DNA from: Rhodobacter sp. SGA-6-6
GTDB lineage: Bacteria > Pseudomonadota > Alphaproteobacteria > Rhodobacterales > Rhodobacteraceae
Direction of reading: 5' to 3'
Assembly (NCBI RefSeq): GCF_011043545.1
Contig: NZ_JAAKGP010000007.1
Location: 124,001-188,000, forward strand
Length of the DNA stretch: 64,000 nucleotides
The position numbers and the translations under genes were made by a program. Each line of letters opens with the position of its first letter. The stretch's first letter is position 1. This document shows positions 728 to 59,920 of this stretch, in pieces. Below the pieces are notes generated by a model. The model had not been told where the DNA came from and searched no databases. It saw nothing but the letters and a program-made list of their open reading frames with translations.

Positions 728-772
728 GGGGGTGCCCTTGGCCGTGGCATCGGGATTCTCCGCGGCCTGTTC

Positions 773-981
773 GGGCGGGAGAAGGCGAGGCACTGCCTCG
801 CCCCCGCCCGTGCGGATGGGCTCACCCGGAGACGGCAGTCACGAGAACCCCGAGAGGCCAGCGCCCGACCCGGCGGGCGAGAAGCGCCCGCCGAGGGCGG
901 GGCGGGCGCTGGCCGGGCCATTGAGGCCCGGCCGGTCTGGTTGCAACCGTTGCATCGTGGCGAAGGCGATGGCCTTCGCCA
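773..981 (+). repeat. Intergenic structured repeat A, copy 1
   Basis: First of five ~208-base copies. It folds into ordered stems: GGCGAGGC/GCCTCGCC (784-791 with 795-802), CCAGCGCCCG/CGGGCGCTGG (858-867 with 903-912) enclosing GGCGGGCG/CGCCCGCC (872-879 with 885-892), GGCCGGGCC/GGCCCGGCC (911-919 with 925-933), and CGAAGGC/GCCTTCG (961-967 with 972-978). It lies between two plus-strand genes. Nothing else nameable is visible in the 424-base gap 728-1151. Function unknown; it carries no credible gene. Confidence 0.9.
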
Positions 982-1151
982 GGGAGACCGGGGAACGGTG
1001 GGATGAACCCCACCCTACGGCAGAGATGGCCTCGCCGTAGGGCGGGGGTCACCCCGCCGTCTGTCCCCCGGCAGTCTCCCGCGCAACACCCCTTGCCGAA
1101 GCCTCCCTCACAGCCCTGTTCCCCGCCCCCCGCGCATCCTATATCCGGCGC

Positions 1152-13500: not shown

Positions 13501-15203
13501 TGCTGGAGTTCATCGCCGTCAACATGGCGCCGATCATGTTCGCCTCGCTGGTGGTCTTCCTGCTGCTCGGCTATTCGGTCGCCTTCTCGCTGGCCGCCAA
13601 CGGGCTGCTGTTCTTCGCCATCGGGGTCTGGCTGGCGCCCTATTCGCAGCACACCATCACGCTCGACTGGGCGCTTCTGGGCACCATGCCGCAAAGGCTG
13701 TGGGGCACGATGTCGAACGAGACCATGCTGGCGATCCCGTTCTTCACCTTCATGGGCATCATCCTGGAACGATCGGGCATGGCCGAGGACCTCTTGGACA
13801 CGGTGGGCCAGCTGTTCGGCCCGGTGCGCGGCGGGCTGGCCTATGCGGTGATCATCGTCGGCGCGCTTCTCGCCGCCACCACCGGGGTGGTCGCCGCCTC
13901 GGTCATCGCCATGGGGCTGATCTCGCTGCCGATCATGATGCGCTTCGGCTACGACCGCCGCGTCGCCAGCGGGGTGATCGCCGCCTCGGGCACATTGGCG
14001 CAGATCATCCCGCCCAGCCTGGTGCTGATCGTGCTGGCCGACCAGCTGGGCAAGTCGGTGGGCGACATGTATAAAGGCGCGCTGATCCCCGGGCTGGTGC
14101 TGACCGGGTTCTACATGGCCTATGTCTTCACCATCTCGATCCTGCGGCCGCATTGGGTGCCCGCCCTGCCGCCCGAGGCGCGGACGCTGGGCCATGGCGT
14201 GCTGTCGCTTCTGGTCGCCGTCGCGCTGGCCATCGCCATCGGCTACGGCGCGCATCTCTGGCTCTACCCGACGCAGGGTGCCAATGCCGACATCCTCGGC
14301 GGCTCGGTGGGCGTGATCGCGATCTACCTCTGGGCGCTGGCCGACAAGGCCCTGGGGATGAACCTGCTGTCCAACCTGGCGCGGCAGGTGATCATCGTGC
14401 TGATCCCGCCGTTGGCGCTGATCTTCCTGGTGCTCGGCACCATCTTCCTGGGCATCGCCACCCCGACCGAAGGGGGCGCGATGGGGGCCGTGGGCGCCAT
14501 GGTGCTGGCCGCGATGAAAGGGCGGCTGACCATGCCGGTGATCACCCAGGCGCTGGCCTCGACCACCAGGCTGTCGGCCTTCGTGATGTTCATCCTGGTC
14601 GGCGCGCGGATGTTCAGCCTGGCCTTCTACGGGGTGAACGGGCAGATCTGGGTCGAGCACCTGCTGGTCGGCCTGCCCGGCGGGCAGACCGGGTTCCTGA
14701 TCTTCGTCTCGGTGCTGGTGTTCCTGCTGGCCTTCTTCCTGGACTTCTTCGAGCTGGCCTTCATCATCGTGCCCCTGCTGGTGGCGCCGGCCACCGCGCT
14801 CGGCATCGACCTGATCTGGTTCGGGGTGATCCTGGGGGTGAACATGCAGACCTCGTTCATGCACCCGCCCTTCGGATTCGCGCTGTTCTACCTGCGCTCG
14901 GTCGCGCCGCGGGGGGCCTATACCGACAAGGTGACCGGCAAGCGGCTGGACGGGGTGACGACCGGGCAGATCTATTGGGGCGCGGTGCCCTTCGTGGTGA
15001 TCCAGGTGGTGATGATCGGGGTGGTGATCGCCTTCCCCTCGCTGGTGATGCACTACCAGGGCGTGATCGTCGATCCCTCCACCATCGAGATCAAGGTCCC
15101 CACCCTGCAGCCGATGGCCCCGCTGGGCGGCGCCACCACGGCGCCCGCGCCGGGCGGCCTGCCGGGCCTGCCGACGCTGGGGCAGCCCACGGTGACGCCG
15201 TAG
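13500..15203 (+). CDS. dctM: TRAP transporter large permease
   Basis: A 567-residue DctM-type permease, longer than the ~430 of the classical C4-dicarboxylate DctM; the longer form goes with TakP/FcbT3-like TRAP systems for 2-oxo acids, lactate and aromatics. About a dozen or more hydrophobic segments are visible, with extra ones in the middle (about residues 225-300). Conserved loops include LGTMPQRLWGTMSNETMLAI and NMQTSFMHPPFGFALFYL. The C-terminus after about 530 is Pro/Gly-rich and cytoplasmic or periplasmic. Starts inside the dctQ stop, and ends with an 18-base duplication that carries the stop codon. Confidence 0.92.
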   Translation: MLEFIAVNMAPIMFASLVVFLLLGYSVAFSLAANGLLFFAIGVWLAPYSQHTITLDWALLGTMPQRLWGTMSNETMLAIPFFTFMGIILERSGMAEDLLDTVGQLFGPVRGGLAYAVIIVGALLAATTGVVAASVIAMGLISLPIMMRFGYDRRVASGVIAASGTLAQIIPPSLVLIVLADQLGKSVGDMYKGALIPGLVLTGFYMAYVFTISILRPHWVPALPPEARTLGHGVLSLLVAVALAIAIGYGAHLWLYPTQGANADILGGSVGVIAIYLWALADKALGMNLLSNLARQVIIVLIPPLALIFLVLGTIFLGIATPTEGGAMGAVGAMVLAAMKGRLTMPVITQALASTTRLSAFVMFILVGARMFSLAFYGVNGQIWVEHLLVGLPGGQTGFLIFVSVLVFLLAFFLDFFELAFIIVPLLVAPATALGIDLIWFGVILGVNMQTSFMHPPFGFALFYLRSVAPRGAYTDKVTGKRLDGVTTGQIYWGAVPFVVIQVVMIGVVIAFPSLVMHYQGVIVDPSTIEIKVPTLQPMAPLGGATTAPAPGGLPGLPTLGQPTVTP

Positions 15204-15302: not shown

Positions 15303-15510
15303 GGGCGGGAGAAGGCGAGGCACTGCCTCGCCCCCGCCCGTGCGCAGCGGTTGCACCCGGAAACATTGGTCACACGAAACCCGAGAGGCCAGCGCCCGAC
15401 CCGGCGGGCGAGAAGCGCCCGCCGAGGGCGGGGCGGGCGCTGGCCGGGCCTGAAGGCCCGGCCGGGATGGTTGAAGCGGCATCGCGTGGCGAAGGCGACG
15501 GCCTTCGCCA
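15303..15510 (+). repeat. Intergenic structured repeat A, copy 2
   Basis: All four stems of the family are present; the loop of the GGCCGGGCC/GGCCCGGCC hairpin is TGAA here. It lies between the convergent dctM and dctP, 32 bases after the dctM terminator and 20 bases from the dctP stop. With the terminator it accounts for nearly all of the 326-base gap. Confidence 0.9.
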
Positions 15511-15529: not shown

Positions 15530-16651
<1,122 letters not shown>

Positions 16652-19605: not shown

Positions 19606-20166
19606 ATGTCTGCGCTGAATATCAAAAAGGGCTCGACCAGCCATTCCGCCTATGACCTTCGGGACAGCCATTCCCAGGCCGAGGAAAGCCATACCCTTGC
19701 GGTGATCGTCGAGAACGAGCCGGGGGTGCTGGCCCGCGTGATCGGCCTGTTCTCGGGCCGCGGCTACAACATCGACAGCCTGACCGTGGCCGAGGTGGAC
19801 CATACCGGCCACCGCTCGCGCATCACCGTCGTCACCCGCGGCACCCCTTCGGTGATCGACCAGATCGAGGCGCAGCTGAGCCGGATGGTGCCGGTCCATG
19901 CCGTCCACGACCTGACCGCCGAGGGGCCGAGCGTCCAGCGCGAGCTGGCGCTGATCAAGGTGGCCGGCAAGGGCGACGCAAGGATCGAGGCGCTGCGGCT
20001 CTGCGAGATCTTCCGCGCCAAGGTGGTGGATTCGACGCTGGAGAGCTTCGTCTTCGAGATGACCGGCCCGCCGGAGAAGATCGACGCCTTCGCCGACCTG
20101 ATGCGCCCCTTGGGGCTGAAGGAGATCGCCCGCACCGGCGTGGCGGCGCTGTCGCGGGGGGCTTAG
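19606..20166 (+). CDS. ilvH: Acetolactate synthase, small regulatory subunit
   Basis: A 186-residue regulatory subunit. The N-terminal ACT domain (about 30-105: HTLAVIVENEPGVLARVIGLFSGRGYNIDSL) binds valine and gives feedback inhibition; the C-terminal domain (about 115-180) contacts the large subunit. The ~28-residue extension before the ACT domain is common in Rhodobacterales. The ATG at 19606 is chosen because AGAGATG gives the conserved N-terminus MSALNIKKG; a GATGAA upstream belongs to a half repeat. Same transcript as ilvB. Confidence 0.95.
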   Translation: MSALNIKKGSTSHSAYDLRDSHSQAEESHTLAVIVENEPGVLARVIGLFSGRGYNIDSLTVAEVDHTGHRSRITVVTRGTPSVIDQIEAQLSRMVPVHAVHDLTAEGPSVQRELALIKVAGKGDARIEALRLCEIFRAKVVDSTLESFVFEMTGPPEKIDAFADLMRPLGLKEIARTGVAALSRGA

Positions 20167-20201: not shown

Positions 20202-20410
20202 GGGCAGGAGAAGGCAAGGCACTGCCTCGCCCCGCCCGTGCGCGGCAGGTCACCCGGAGACCTGTCGGCACGAAAACCCCGAGAGGCCAGCGCCCGACCC
20301 GGCGGGCGTGTAAGCGCCCGCCGGGGGCGGGGCGGGCGCTGGCCGGGCCTTTGGGGCCCGGCCGGTCCTGTTGCAGCCGGTGTGCTATGGCGAAGGCGAT
20401 GGCCTTCGCC
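20202..20410 (+). repeat. Intergenic structured repeat A, copy 3
   Basis: The most diverged copy in its loops: the central hairpin loop is TGTAAG instead of AGAAG while its stem is intact. The first stem carries one uncompensated change (GGCAAGGC against GCCTCGCC). It lies between the convergent ilvH and a membrane-protein gene. Confidence 0.9.
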
Positions 20411-48695: not shown

Positions 48696-48905
48696 GGGCG
48701 GGAAAAGGCGAGGCACTGCCTCGCCCCGCCCGCGCTTAACGGCGTCACCCGGAAACGGCAGCGGTTCCAAACCCCGGGAGGTCAGCGCCCGACCCGGCGG
48801 GCGAGAAGCGCCCGCCGCGGGCGGGGCGGGCGCTGGCCGGGCCATTGGGGCCCGGCCGGGACAAGGGGAAGCGTTGCACTGTGGCGAAGGCACGCGCCTT
48901 CGCCA
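48696..48905 (+). repeat. Intergenic structured repeat A, copy 4
   Basis: All stems are present; the last hairpin is CGAAGGC-ACGC-GCCTTCG with a loop unlike the GATG of other copies. It lies between rseP and the 45-residue gene, both on the minus strand, so here it is antisense to the flanking transcript. It fills most of the 366-base gap 48581-48946; the rest shows nothing recognisable. Confidence 0.9.
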
Positions 48906-48946: not shown

Positions 48947-50290
48947 TCACACGCAGGTCACGTCCTGCAGCAGCGCGAAGATCATCACCGACAGCAGCAC
49001 CGTCAGCCCGATCGACATCAGCACCCGCAGCGCGCGGTCCGAGGGCGGGCGGCCGGTCGCCGCCTCCCAGGCGTGGAAGACCAGATGGCCGCCGTCCAGC
49101 ACCGGAATCGGGAACAGGTTCAGGATGCCCACCCCGAAGGAGATGATGGCGAAGAGGGTGAAGAAGGTCTCCGGCCCCGCCTTCGCGGCATCGCCGAGCG
49201 CATCGGCCATGCCGATCACCCCCGACATGTTGCAGGCCGAGATATTGCCCGCGACCATGTGCCAGAGGCCCGAGAAGGTGCTGGTGGTGATCCCCCACAT
49301 CGCCGAGAGCGAGCCGGTCAGCGACTCGGCCAGTCCGGCCGGGCGGGTGCCGGGGTCGAAGATCTGGCCCTGCTCGATCCCCATCAGCCATTCGGTGCGG
49401 AAGCCGCCCTCCGGGTCGGGGATGTCGCGCTTGCGCGGGGTCAGCACCATGTCGGTGGTGGTGCCGTTCCGCCAGACCGTCAGCGCCACCGGCTGGCCGC
49501 CCGATCCGGTGACGATCTCGCGCAGCTGCAGGAAGGTGACGATCTCCTGCCCGCCGGCGCGGGTGATGACGTCGCCGGCCCGAAGCCCGGCATCCACCGC
49601 CGCCGACTTCACCTGCACCCCGCCGACCATGGCCGGGGCGGGATGCGGGCCGGTGAAGGTGACGGTCTGGCCATCGCGCTCCACAGTCCATTCGATGGAA
49701 GGGGTCTGCGGCAGGCTGTCGTTGGCCAGCTTGCCGAGGTCGGAATAGCTGGCCACCGGCGTGCCGTTCAGCGCCAGCACGATGTCGCCGGGCCGCAGCA
49801 TCTCGCCCGCCCAGGGCAGCGCCCGGGCACGCTCCACCCGCGGCTGGCCGTCGGCGATGCCGAGCGTCAGGCCCATGACGACGAGGACGGCGAAGGTCAG
49901 CAGGAAATTGGCGAAGGGACCGGCCGCCACCGTGGCCGCCCGCGCCCAGAGGGGGGCGCCGGCCATGGTGTGGCGGCGCTCGGCGGCGGAAAGGCCGGCG
50001 GTCCCGGCGCTGCGGACCGAGGCCGCGTCGGCGTCGCCGAGGAATTTCACGTAGCCGCCGAAGGGGATGGCGGCGATCTGCCATTTCGTGCCGCGCCGGT
50101 CGGTGCGGCTGGCCAGCACCTTGCCGAAGCCGATGGAGAAGACCTCGGCATGAATGCCGCACCAGCGGCCGACGATGTAATGGCCGTATTCGTGGACCGC
50201 CACGATCACCGACAGCGCGACGACGAAGAAGAAGGCGGCCCAGATCACGGCCCAGGCCGAGCCGCCCATGGCGGCGATGAGGTCGGTCAT
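48947..50290 (-). CDS. rseP: Site-2 protease RseP
   Basis: A 447-residue intramembrane zinc metalloprotease (M50). The HEXXH motif is HEYGH at 33-37 in the first helix, and the second half-site is LDGG in PIPVLDGGHLVF near the C-terminus. A periplasmic region (about 120-330) carries one or two PDZ domains (VASYSDLGKL; VKSAAVDAGLRAGD). It releases envelope-stress sigma factors by cutting anti-sigma proteins and clears signal-peptide remnants. It overlaps the dxr stop by four bases. Confidence 0.95.
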   Translation of the reverse strand: MTDLIAAMGGSAWAVIWAAFFFVVALSVIVAVHEYGHYIVGRWCGIHAEVFSIGFGKVLASRTDRRGTKWQIAAIPFGGYVKFLGDADAASVRSAGTAGLSAAERRHTMAGAPLWARAATVAAGPFANFLLTFAVLVVMGLTLGIADGQPRVERARALPWAGEMLRPGDIVLALNGTPVASYSDLGKLANDSLPQTPSIEWTVERDGQTVTFTGPHPAPAMVGGVQVKSAAVDAGLRAGDVITRAGGQEIVTFLQLREIVTGSGGQPVALTVWRNGTTTDMVLTPRKRDIPDPEGGFRTEWLMGIEQGQIFDPGTRPAGLAESLTGSLSAMWGITTSTFSGLWHMVAGNISACNMSGVIGMADALGDAAKAGPETFFTLFAIISFGVGILNLFPIPVLDGGHLVFHAWEAATGRPPSDRALRVLMSIGLTVLLSVMIFALLQDVTCV

Positions 50291-52290: not shown

Positions 52291-52498
52291 GGGCGGGACA
52301 GGGAAACGCAGTGCGGTTCCCCCGCCCGTGCACAGCATATCAGCCGGAAACGGTGCGGCACGAGACCCCGAGAGGCCAGCGCCCGACCCGGCGGGCGAGA
52401 AGCGCCCGCCGAGGGCGGGGCGGGCGCTGGCCGGGCCTCGAAGGCCCGGCCGGTCCGGTTGAGATGGTGCGCTGTGGCGAAGGCGATGGCCTTCGCCA
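52291..52498 (+). repeat. Intergenic structured repeat A, copy 5 (altered first stem)
   Basis: In place of GGCGAGGC/GCCTCGCC the first hairpin reads GGGAAACGC (52301-52309) and GCGGTTCCC (52313-52321), a different sequence that still pairs at eight of nine positions. The other three stems are conserved. It lies between cdsA and uppS, both on the minus strand. Confidence 0.9.
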
Positions 52499-58834: not shown

Positions 58835-59920
58835 ATGCTTCTTTTTGTGCTGCGCCGCATCGGCGTGATGATCCTGACAGCCCTTGCGCTGACATTCGTG
58901 GTCTTCTACCTGACCAACCTGCCGCCCAACCTTGAAAAGCTTGCCAAATCCGAGGCCTCGGCCCGGATGACCGACGAGCAGGTCGACAGCTGGCTGGCCT
59001 CGAACGGCTTCGCGCAGCCGGTGCTGACGCGCTACGCCGAATGGCTGGGGGTGCTGCCGGGCTGGACCGGCACCTCCTCCGACGGCAAGCCGATGGGGCG
59101 CTGCCTGAACCGCATCCCCGCCGGCGAGACCCCGCCCGCCTACTGCGGCATCCTGCAAGGCAACTGGGGCTGGTCCACCGTCTTCAAGCAGCCGGTGTCC
59201 GAGGTGCTGGGGCGTTCCTTGGGCCATACCGGCTGGCTGATGCTCTGGGTAATGATCGTCATGGTGCCGACCTCGCTGATCCTCGGCGTGCTGTCGGGGA
59301 TGCGCGAAGGCAGCCGCACCGACCGGGTGCTGTCCACCTTCGCCATCGCCACCACCGCCACCCCCGAATATGTCTCGGGCGTCATCTTCATCGCGCTTTT
59401 CGCCTCCGCCACCGCGGGCATCTCGCCCTGGCTGGCCGAGATGGGCTGGATCGAGGGCAAGACCCTGTTCCAGGGCACCGCCACCAGCGCGATGGACGGC
59501 CTCACCTTCTGGAACTTCGGCCTGCCGGTGCTGACCATCGCGCTTTACGGCATCGGCTACATCGCCCGGATGACCCGCGCCTCGATGACCGAGGTGATGA
59601 CCCAGCAATACATCCGCACCGCCCGGCTGAAGGGGGTTTCCTTCCGTGAGGTGGTGATGAAGCACGCGCTGCGGAACGCGCTGATCGCCCCCTTCACGGT
59701 GATCATGCTGCAGTTCCCCTGGCTGCTGAACGGCGTGGTGATCGTCGAGACGCTCTTCAACTACAAGGGCTTCGGCTGGACGCTGGTGCAGGCCGCCGGC
59801 AACAACGACATCAACATGCTGCTGGCCTGTTCGGTGGTGGCCGTCTTCGTGGTGCTGGTGACGCAGTTGATCTCGGACATCGGCTATGTCTTCCTGAACC
59901 CGCGCATCCGTCTGGCCTGA
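58835..59920 (+). CDS. Peptide-type ABC transporter permease, DppB-like
   Basis: A 361-residue inner-membrane permease with six membrane segments and the EAA loop in QQYIRTARLKGVSFREVVMKHALRNAL. A large periplasmic segment between helices 1 and 2 (about 30-125, with cysteines in GRCLNRIP and PAYCGILQ that could form a disulfide) is longer than in E. coli DppB. It pairs with the DppC-like permease 13 bases downstream. Confidence 0.92.
   Translation: MLLFVLRRIGVMILTALALTFVVFYLTNLPPNLEKLAKSEASARMTDEQVDSWLASNGFAQPVLTRYAEWLGVLPGWTGTSSDGKPMGRCLNRIPAGETPPAYCGILQGNWGWSTVFKQPVSEVLGRSLGHTGWLMLWVMIVMVPTSLILGVLSGMREGSRTDRVLSTFAIATTATPEYVSGVIFIALFASATAGISPWLAEMGWIEGKTLFQGTATSAMDGLTFWNFGLPVLTIALYGIGYIARMTRASMTEVMTQQYIRTARLKGVSFREVVMKHALRNALIAPFTVIMLQFPWLLNGVVIVETLFNYKGFGWTLVQAAGNNDINMLLACSVVAVFVVLVTQLISDIGYVFLNPRIRLA

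What the first reader, a model, noticed from the sequence alone, without database searches (positions are those of the whole stretch)
773..981. Five-copy ~208-base intergenic element with four conserved stem-loops
Copies at 773-981, 15303-15510, 20202-20410, 48696-48905 and 52291-52498 share length, order of stems and plus-strand orientation, while loops vary (ATTGA, TGAA, TTTGG, ATTGG, TCGAA in the third hairpin). Stems are kept better than loops, which points to selection on RNA or DNA structure, not merely to copying. All five are between genes; none carries a gene or obvious terminal repeats. I do not recognise it as a named family.
Basis: seen in the sequence. Interest (0 to 1): 0.75.

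Follow-up and report, generated by a model that had tools for sequence, protein, structure and literature searches.

The report
Four-hairpin repeat scattered across a genome
About two hundred similar non-coding copies of a four-hairpin sequence sit between genes of this bacterium, mostly just behind them; they spread within its lineage, related genera keep the same folds by compensating mutations, a simpler two-hairpin version occurs in many related genera, and what copies them is unknown.

Summary
The five ~208-nt copies belong to a family of about 200 in this 4.29 Mb genome (208 core matches, 3 in the control). Of twelve congeners, one holds three copies and eleven only background; two window sites are empty in congeners, so the family spread in this lineage. 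No target duplication was detected, and no Y1 or IS91-type transposase in this genome.
The hairpins are real. Among 98 copies, paired bases differ from consensus in about 1.7% of cells, unpaired in about 20%. A 36-sequence cross-genus alignment has 105 two-sided compensating cells, 36.8 when shuffled.
Hairpins 2+3 form a core matched in 107 of 244 genomes sampled from the order (57 of 101 genera; 64 with two or more matches), also with covariation, and found between ruvA and ruvB in two genera. Hairpins 1 and 4 mark the high-copy form.
Best reading: a non-autonomous dispersed repeat whose core works in mRNA 3' ends or between cistrons. It resembles REP/BIME in placement but fails REP tests. 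No Rfam match. Mover and function are unproven.

The parts
772..991 (+). copy 1 of the element (stated 773-981); right end set by analogy with close pairs elsewhere in the genome
772..810 (+). copy 1, hairpin H1 (GC-rich outer stem CGGGCGGG/CCCGCCCG, inner stem that covaries across genera)
856..914 (+). copy 1, hairpin H2, the nearly invariant 59-nt core with a nested hairpin and an asymmetric internal loop
915..929 (+). copy 1, hairpin H3 (directly after H2; loop ATTGA)
958..981 (+). copy 1, hairpin H4
15303..15510 (+). copy 2, between a + gene (stop at 15203) and a - gene (3' end at 15530); element absent at this site in congeners L175 and L176
20202..20410 (+). copy 3, between convergent genes ending at 20166 and 20454; site empty in congeners L175, L176, L181
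48696..48905 (+). copy 4, 41 nt from the 3' end of the - gene 48947-50290
52291..52498 (+). copy 5; its H1 inner stem carries the GGAAACGC-type sequence seen in other genera

Best explanation
A non-autonomous, non-coding dispersed repeat. Step 1 (shown): a two-hairpin core (H2+H3), found in many genera, lies mostly close behind stop codons, sometimes between genes of one operon, with its fold kept by compensating changes. Step 2 (shown by distribution): in some genomes the core carries two further hairpins (H1, H4), and this ~220-nt four-hairpin form has been copied to tens or hundreds of sites; in this genome to ~200, in a lineage-specific spread, without detectable target duplication. Step 3 (inferred): insertions survive where they do no harm, behind stop codons and chiefly between convergent genes. 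Step 4 (inferred): there the GC-rich hairpins act mainly in RNA, at mRNA 3' ends or between cistrons, slowing 3'-to-5' decay and separating neighbouring transcripts, as has been proposed for REP/BIME sequences; H2, read from the strand shown, is the working part. The enzyme that copies the element is unknown; the usual suspects are not shared by the copy-rich genomes.
For: Copy number 208 v 3 control. In the genus: 208 here, 3 in G365 (all three real elements), 0-11 in eleven others with control counts 0-9. Empty sites at copies 15303 and 20202. Occupied gaps in the sampled own sequence: 42 of 128 convergent, 51 of 546 tandem, 7 of 123 divergent; 98 of 140 distances to a facing stop are 50 nt or less, 59 of 65 distances to a facing start exceed 75 nt. 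Stem v spacer pairwise identity .85-.96 v .61-.71. Covariation score and two-sided cells reached by 0 of 500 shuffles in A2 and in A4. Core model matches 107 of 244 genomes. Core at the same site in two genera between ruvA and ruvB, and between rfbB and rfbD in Phaeobacter and Leisingera. G-T versus A-C cells in H2: 15 v 2, core set 15 v 1; own-genome single changes in H2 C>T 20 v G>A 3.
Against: No expression data were available. H4 shows the opposite wobble sign (G-T 1 v A-C 6); the other stems give 4 v 2, 1 v 2 and 5 v 1. Rhodobacter-type copies have 29 C>T v 30 G>A in H2, and over 197 copies the distinct columns are 18 v 19, so the working strand is not settled. No conserved U-tract borders the element, so simple termination is not indicated. 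Stem conservation could also come from selection for mobility. Two of the five covariation measures are weak or neutral in A2 (pairs with two-sided change 14 of 500, pair types 278 of 500) and one in A4 (pair types 102 of 500). The strand polarity in this genome is not predicted by a pure 3'-UTR role.
Confidence: 0.5

Rival explanations
1. Purely selfish mobile DNA: the stems are recognition sites of an unknown recombinase or transposase acting in trans, nearly all copies are intact because they are young or still active, and the host gains nothing; placement reflects only where insertion is harmless.
For: Lineage-specific spread and empty sites; 105 of 107 profile hits in sampled own sequence score over 90 bits; head-to-tail arrays in Rhodobacter-type contigs; neighbouring copies are no more alike than distant ones.843 v .847; avoidance of divergent gaps and of most tandem gaps fits harmless insertion.
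Against: No PF01797 (Y1) match in 17 of 18 genomes including this one, no PF04986 (Y2) in 13 of 15 including this one, no PF00078 (reverse transcriptase) in the copy-rich G274, G205 and G195. The core persists at the same operon site in two genera. Spacers are 61-71% identical while stems are 85-96%, which a young burst from one master copy would not give.
Confidence: 0.3
2. A DNA-level polar element: oriented copies mark the replication direction of the chromosome, or were laid down by an enzyme that uses single-stranded template at the replication fork.
For: 79 of 105 copies on the locally C-rich strand (p 2e-7), 31 of 42 in convergent gaps where gene direction is neutral (p 0.003); 35 strand switches in 127 neighbouring pairs v 62.6 +- 5.6 shuffled, 0 of 2000 as low; DNA fold z -7.9.
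Against: In G205 the sign is opposite: 25 of 32 on the G-rich strand, or 25 of 31 without a palindromic shadow hit in L209, although the atp genes lie on the strand that is G-rich in neighbouring sampled loci in both genomes. G247 shows 8 of 13 on the C-rich strand. Eleven of twelve congeners lack the element, so it is not a needed chromosome signal.
Confidence: 0.12
3. A bidirectional transcription terminator module.
For: Densest in convergent gaps, 42 of 128 against 7 of 123 divergent; median distance to a facing stop 35 nt.
Against: No conserved U-tract on either side; the core sits between ruvA and ruvB, 21 nt before the ruvB start, where full termination would be harmful.
Confidence: 0.08

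Closest known systems
REP / BIME sequences (GTAG- and CGTC-tagged palindromes; RAYT transposases)
   Same: High-copy intergenic hairpins, predominantly between unidirectional and convergent genes and downstream of coding regions (PMC3733652, start of abstract and passages).
   Different: ~220 nt with four hairpins instead of 20-40 bp; no conserved tetranucleotide at the borders; no Y1 transposase match in the genome; head-to-tail where clustered.
bcr1 and other stem-loop repeat families (PMC2267715, passages only)
   Same: Dispersed repeats of ~150-170 nt with a common predicted secondary structure.
   Different: Other phylum; no sequence comparison was made; here a core recurs in many genera with compensating changes and persists in an operon.
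H2-H3 core of the Roseobacter group (this report; Leisingera, Phaeobacter, Tritonibacter, Pseudosulfitobacter plasmids)
   Same: Same nested core hairpin followed directly by a second hairpin.
   Different: No H1 or H4 seen by eye in the loci fetched; 1-17 matches per genome where scored (only 19 candidates scored per genome).
IS200/IS605 elements
   Same: Subterminal hairpins and replication-strand bias (start of abstract of PMC6006769); no target duplication (recalled).
   Different: No Y1 transposase match in this genome, and bias of opposite sign in two genomes.

Membership tests
REP (RAYT-associated) | 20-40 bp single palindrome | tested here: not met
   208-220 nt, four hairpins
REP (RAYT-associated) | GTAG or CGTC tetranucleotide at the foot of the hairpin | tested here: not met
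   no conserved tetranucleotide in the borders of 98 aligned copies
REP (RAYT-associated) | RAYT/Y1 transposase in the genome | tested here: not met
   PF01797: no match in G000 nor in 16 of the 17 other genomes; one weak match in G247; the family rings in 6 of 14 control genomes
REP (RAYT-associated) | over 100 copies, intergenic, behind genes | tested here: met
MITE | target-site duplication | tested here: not met
   shared words across the borders of 98 copies no longer than in shuffled pairs; duplications of about 3 nt or less could be missed
MITE | terminal inverted repeats | tested here: inconclusive
   none seen by eye in the aligned ends; no dedicated inverted-repeat search was run
IS200/IS605-derived element | Y1 transposase present | tested here: not met
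IS200/IS605-derived element | consistent bias to one replication strand | tested here: inconclusive
   79 of 105 on the C-rich strand here, opposite sign in G205, 25 of 32
IS91/ISCR-derived element | Y2 transposase present | tested here: not met
   PF04986 not found in G000, G274, G205, G195; found in G394 and G247, 2 of 15 genomes; it rings in none of the 14 controls, so sensitivity rests on those two
Retron / group II intron derivative | reverse transcriptase in copy-rich genomes | tested here: not met
   PF00078 in G000 (1) and G247 (2) but not in G274, G205 or G195
Any Rfam 15 family | score above gathering threshold on the element | tested here: not met

The most novel reading that the evidence does not exclude
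An undescribed structured RNA element found across many Rhodobacterales genera (the H2-H3 core, kept in operons such as ruvAB) has turned, in several genera, into a high-copy four-hairpin mobile element that is copied by a machinery none of whose usual candidates (Y1, Y2, reverse transcriptase) is shared by the copy-rich genomes, and that is laid down with chromosome-arm polarity.
Probability: 0.3. Interest if true: 0.72.

Novelty: new variant of a known kind. Interest (0 to 1): 0.52.

Why it matters
Structured high-copy repeats are often explained by REP plus its RAYT transposase. Here the repeat reaches ~200 copies in a genome where no such enzyme was found, keeps its fold by compensating changes across genera, has a simpler form inside operons of other genera, and shows strand polarity over whole contigs. 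That makes both the mover and the role of such repeats testable in named relatives such as Frigidibacter albus, Leisingera and Phaeobacter.

Tried and rejected
Outer stem joining both flanks: rejected, flank pairs no better than shuffled. Target duplication: not found. Local spread: rejected, neighbours no more alike than distant copies. Link of tandem arrays to one gene: not seen in nine arrays with 15 flanking genes, judged only from called genes and the first residues of their proteins, no family scan. Hammerhead-like core in the G205 insert: considered from memory, not supported by Rfam. Leisingera and other relatives in Rfam: none at E 0.1 in seven loci. Phages: no match to the element; plasmids: two Leisingera records, partial. 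Strand of action from wobble pairs: favours + for H2 but not by distinct columns over 197 copies, 18 v 19. Within-genome covariation alone: few supported pairs. Orthology of one G365 copy (L179) with the copy at C23:174430-174641: suggestive only, G365 has extra called genes on both sides. First gene caller gave antisense shadow genes and was replaced. Literature: ten searches showed no description of this repeat; the library holds open-licence PubMed Central papers only. Five papers were looked at with the find function (for PMC2817692 it found none of the terms), PMC6006769 only as the start of its abstract; none was read whole.

Rows dropped or capped: one search kept 98 of 107 own hits (score over 90, full length, 60-nt flanks in hand); searches used 105 of 107 (score over 90). 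One search listed only its first 100 places; one search removed the overlapping palindromic pair at C1:97677/97703 and worked with 143 of about 208 places. One search kept all 32 merged copies, one of them a palindromic shadow (L209). One search scored 19 candidates per genome; 43 of its 107 genomes have a single match, and all 107 bear the window's family label f1. Alignment A2 used 36 of about 197 copies in hand; A4 used 17 core copies (L163, L189, L190, L240, L242, L248, L249 left out for indels, L244-L246 as four-hairpin forms).

Full report
WHAT WAS CHECKED. Each lies between genes called by my own caller. Copy 1 folds far better than shuffled sequence as + strand RNA and as - strand DNA. 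No Rfam family reaches its threshold on the window copies; the one gathering hit in the window, Cis52_sRNA, lies elsewhere.

COPY NUMBER. The window is part of a 4.29 Mb, 67-contig genome of an unnamed species (G000). BLAST of copy 1 scored 40 of 439 candidates; all 40 were copies of 203-212 nt, itself and 39 others at 87-91% identity, and a further match was a 29-nt fragment. The 21-nt core of hairpin 2 with up to three mismatches occurs 208 times (116 forward, 92 reverse); the reversed control occurs three times. In 851 kb of sampled own sequence (window plus 40 stretches chosen around copies), a profile of the five copies gave 107 hits, 105 of them over 90 bits. In the same 851 kb the core model gave 102 matches at E 1e-4.

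ANATOMY. Close pairs start to agree at the base of H1 and stop 9-10 nt past H4. Mean pairwise identity among 98 copies: H1 .933, H2 .955, H3 .853, H4 .896, spacers .71 and .61, flanks .32 and .37 against .30 for far flanks. Of 5317 paired cells, 106 have one changed base and 35 two (29 of these still pair), so about 1.7% of paired bases differ from consensus; about 20% of unpaired ones do. In 36 copies from this genome, one congener, Frigidibacter, Pseudorhodobacter and Rhodobacter-type contigs, 96.6% of cells pair (shuffled 91.3), 105 cells carry changes on both sides (shuffled 36.8, sd 4.2) and the covariation score is .161 against .070; none of 500 shuffles reaches these three. Pairs with two-sided change are 11 v 9.3 (14 of 500) and pair types 28 v 27.7 (278 of 500), so those two measures are weak or neutral. 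H1-inner, H3 and H4 covary; H2 is almost invariant there; structures slid by 1-3 columns pair 37-52% of cells.

THE CORE. A covariance model of H2-H3 matches, at E 1e-4, 107 of 244 genomes drawn from the order, 57 of 101 genera; 64 genomes have two or more matches and 43 have one, some of these near the threshold of a roughly calibrated model. Only 19 candidates were scored per genome with strict filters, so copy numbers are lower bounds, and all 107 genomes bear the window's family label f1. Named relatives are plasmids of Leisingera, Phaeobacter, Tritonibacter and Pseudosulfitobacter: 196 of 72,556 plasmid records match a Leisingera core, 61 of them over at least 80% of it. In 17 core copies (16 distinct) 98.2% of cells pair and 23 cells change on both sides against 5.3; pairs with two-sided change are 7 v 3.7 (1 of 500), pair types 14 v 12.3 (102 of 500). 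Of 20 loci fetched, 14 have the core within 30 nt of a called stop facing it; L244-L246 (G519) are four-hairpin forms by eye. At L247 (G075) and L248 (G502), of different genera, the core lies between ruvA and ruvB (Pfam), 14 nt behind one and 21 nt before the other; stems are almost unchanged, and L248 has an extra 27-nt insert. Extra hairpins inserted at the same internal loop recur: seven split matches in G205, five of them printed, L240, L248 and L249, L190 and two loci of G003.

MOBILITY. Among 13 genomes of the genus this one has 208 core matches, G365 three (control 2), the others 0-11 with control counts 0-9. The three in G365 are full elements with changed but still pairing stems. At copy 20202 the aligned flanks are 11, 27 and 68 nt apart in three congeners instead of nearly 300; at copy 15303 two congeners have shorter gaps without the element. 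Of 394 family genomes (drawn evenly), 89 have at least one match at two mismatches, mostly one or two; seven or more occur in six: G274 229, G000 190, G247 47, G195 33, G205 32, G003 7. Contig lengths identify G205 as Frigidibacter albus SP32 and G247 as Pseudorhodobacter sp. PARRP1. In Rhodobacter MAG contigs and some unnamed loci, copies form head-to-tail arrays; 15 of 47 neighbouring pairs are spaced 236-242 bp, and many of the rest involve partial copies. No target duplication was detected. PF01797 is not found in 17 of 18 genomes, PF04986 in 13 of 15, PF00078 in 11 of 15, including G274, G205 and G195.

PLACEMENT AND POLARITY. Convergent gaps are occupied in 42 of 128 cases, tandem in 51 of 546, divergent in 7 of 123. 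Of 140 distances to a facing stop, 98 are 50 nt or less (median 35); of 65 to a facing start, 59 exceed 75 nt. One of 105 copies overlaps a called gene end, by 11 nt. 79 of 105 lie on the locally C-rich strand, 31 of 42 in convergent gaps; strand switches between neighbours are 35 of 127 against 62.6 shuffled. G205 shows the opposite sign, 25 of 32 on the G-rich strand. The atp genes lie on the strand that is G-rich in the neighbouring sampled loci in both genomes. G247 gives 8 of 13 on the C-rich strand. So the polarity is real here but its rule is not general.

WORKING STRAND. In H2, cells that are G-T on the strand shown outnumber A-C cells 15 to 2 and 15 to 1 in the core set; own-genome single changes are C>T 20, G>A 3. 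Against this, Rhodobacter-type copies have 29 and 30, distinct columns over 197 copies are 18 and 19, and H4 leans the other way, 1 to 6. This favours RNA (or single-stranded DNA) of the shown strand for H2, weakly.

CONCLUSION. Shown: a real, high-copy, structure-constrained element that spread in this lineage and is built on a core found in many genera. Inferred: function in RNA at gene ends, and copying by an unidentified machinery. It resembles REP/BIME in placement but fails three defining REP tests, so it is not filed there. In the ten literature searches made no description of it was seen; four papers were seen as passages and a fifth was searched without a match, others as listings only.

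Noticed in passing
window 1037-1058 (+): A second, shorter GTAG-tagged palindrome (GTAGGGCGGGG..CCCCGCC), 38 strict matches in 851,479 sampled own bases counted on both strands; a looser form lies within 150 nt of 25 of 105 element copies. It looks like a GTAG REP, yet no Y1 transposase match was found in the genome.
   Followed up: partly
window 59499-59675 (-): Rfam RF02647 Cis52_sRNA at 106 bits, antisense to a called gene 58847-59920.
   Followed up: no
L206:3027-3315, L216:8093-8380, L218:8632-8922, L219:8538-8825, L200:18078-18379 (G205): A subfamily with a ~70-nt insert in the H2 internal loop; by eye the insert has hairpins of its own with compensating changes between paralogues.
   Followed up: partly
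L154, L090, L139, L113, L079 and other loci: Head-to-tail arrays with linkers of mostly 17-20 nt, often at contig ends, so the repeat seems to break these assemblies.
   Followed up: partly
L247:222-2012, L248:163-2028: The core hairpin sits between ruvA and ruvB in two genera.
   Followed up: partly
genome G101: 12 matches to the reversed control pattern and none to the pattern itself, perhaps an unrelated GC-rich repeat.
   Followed up: no
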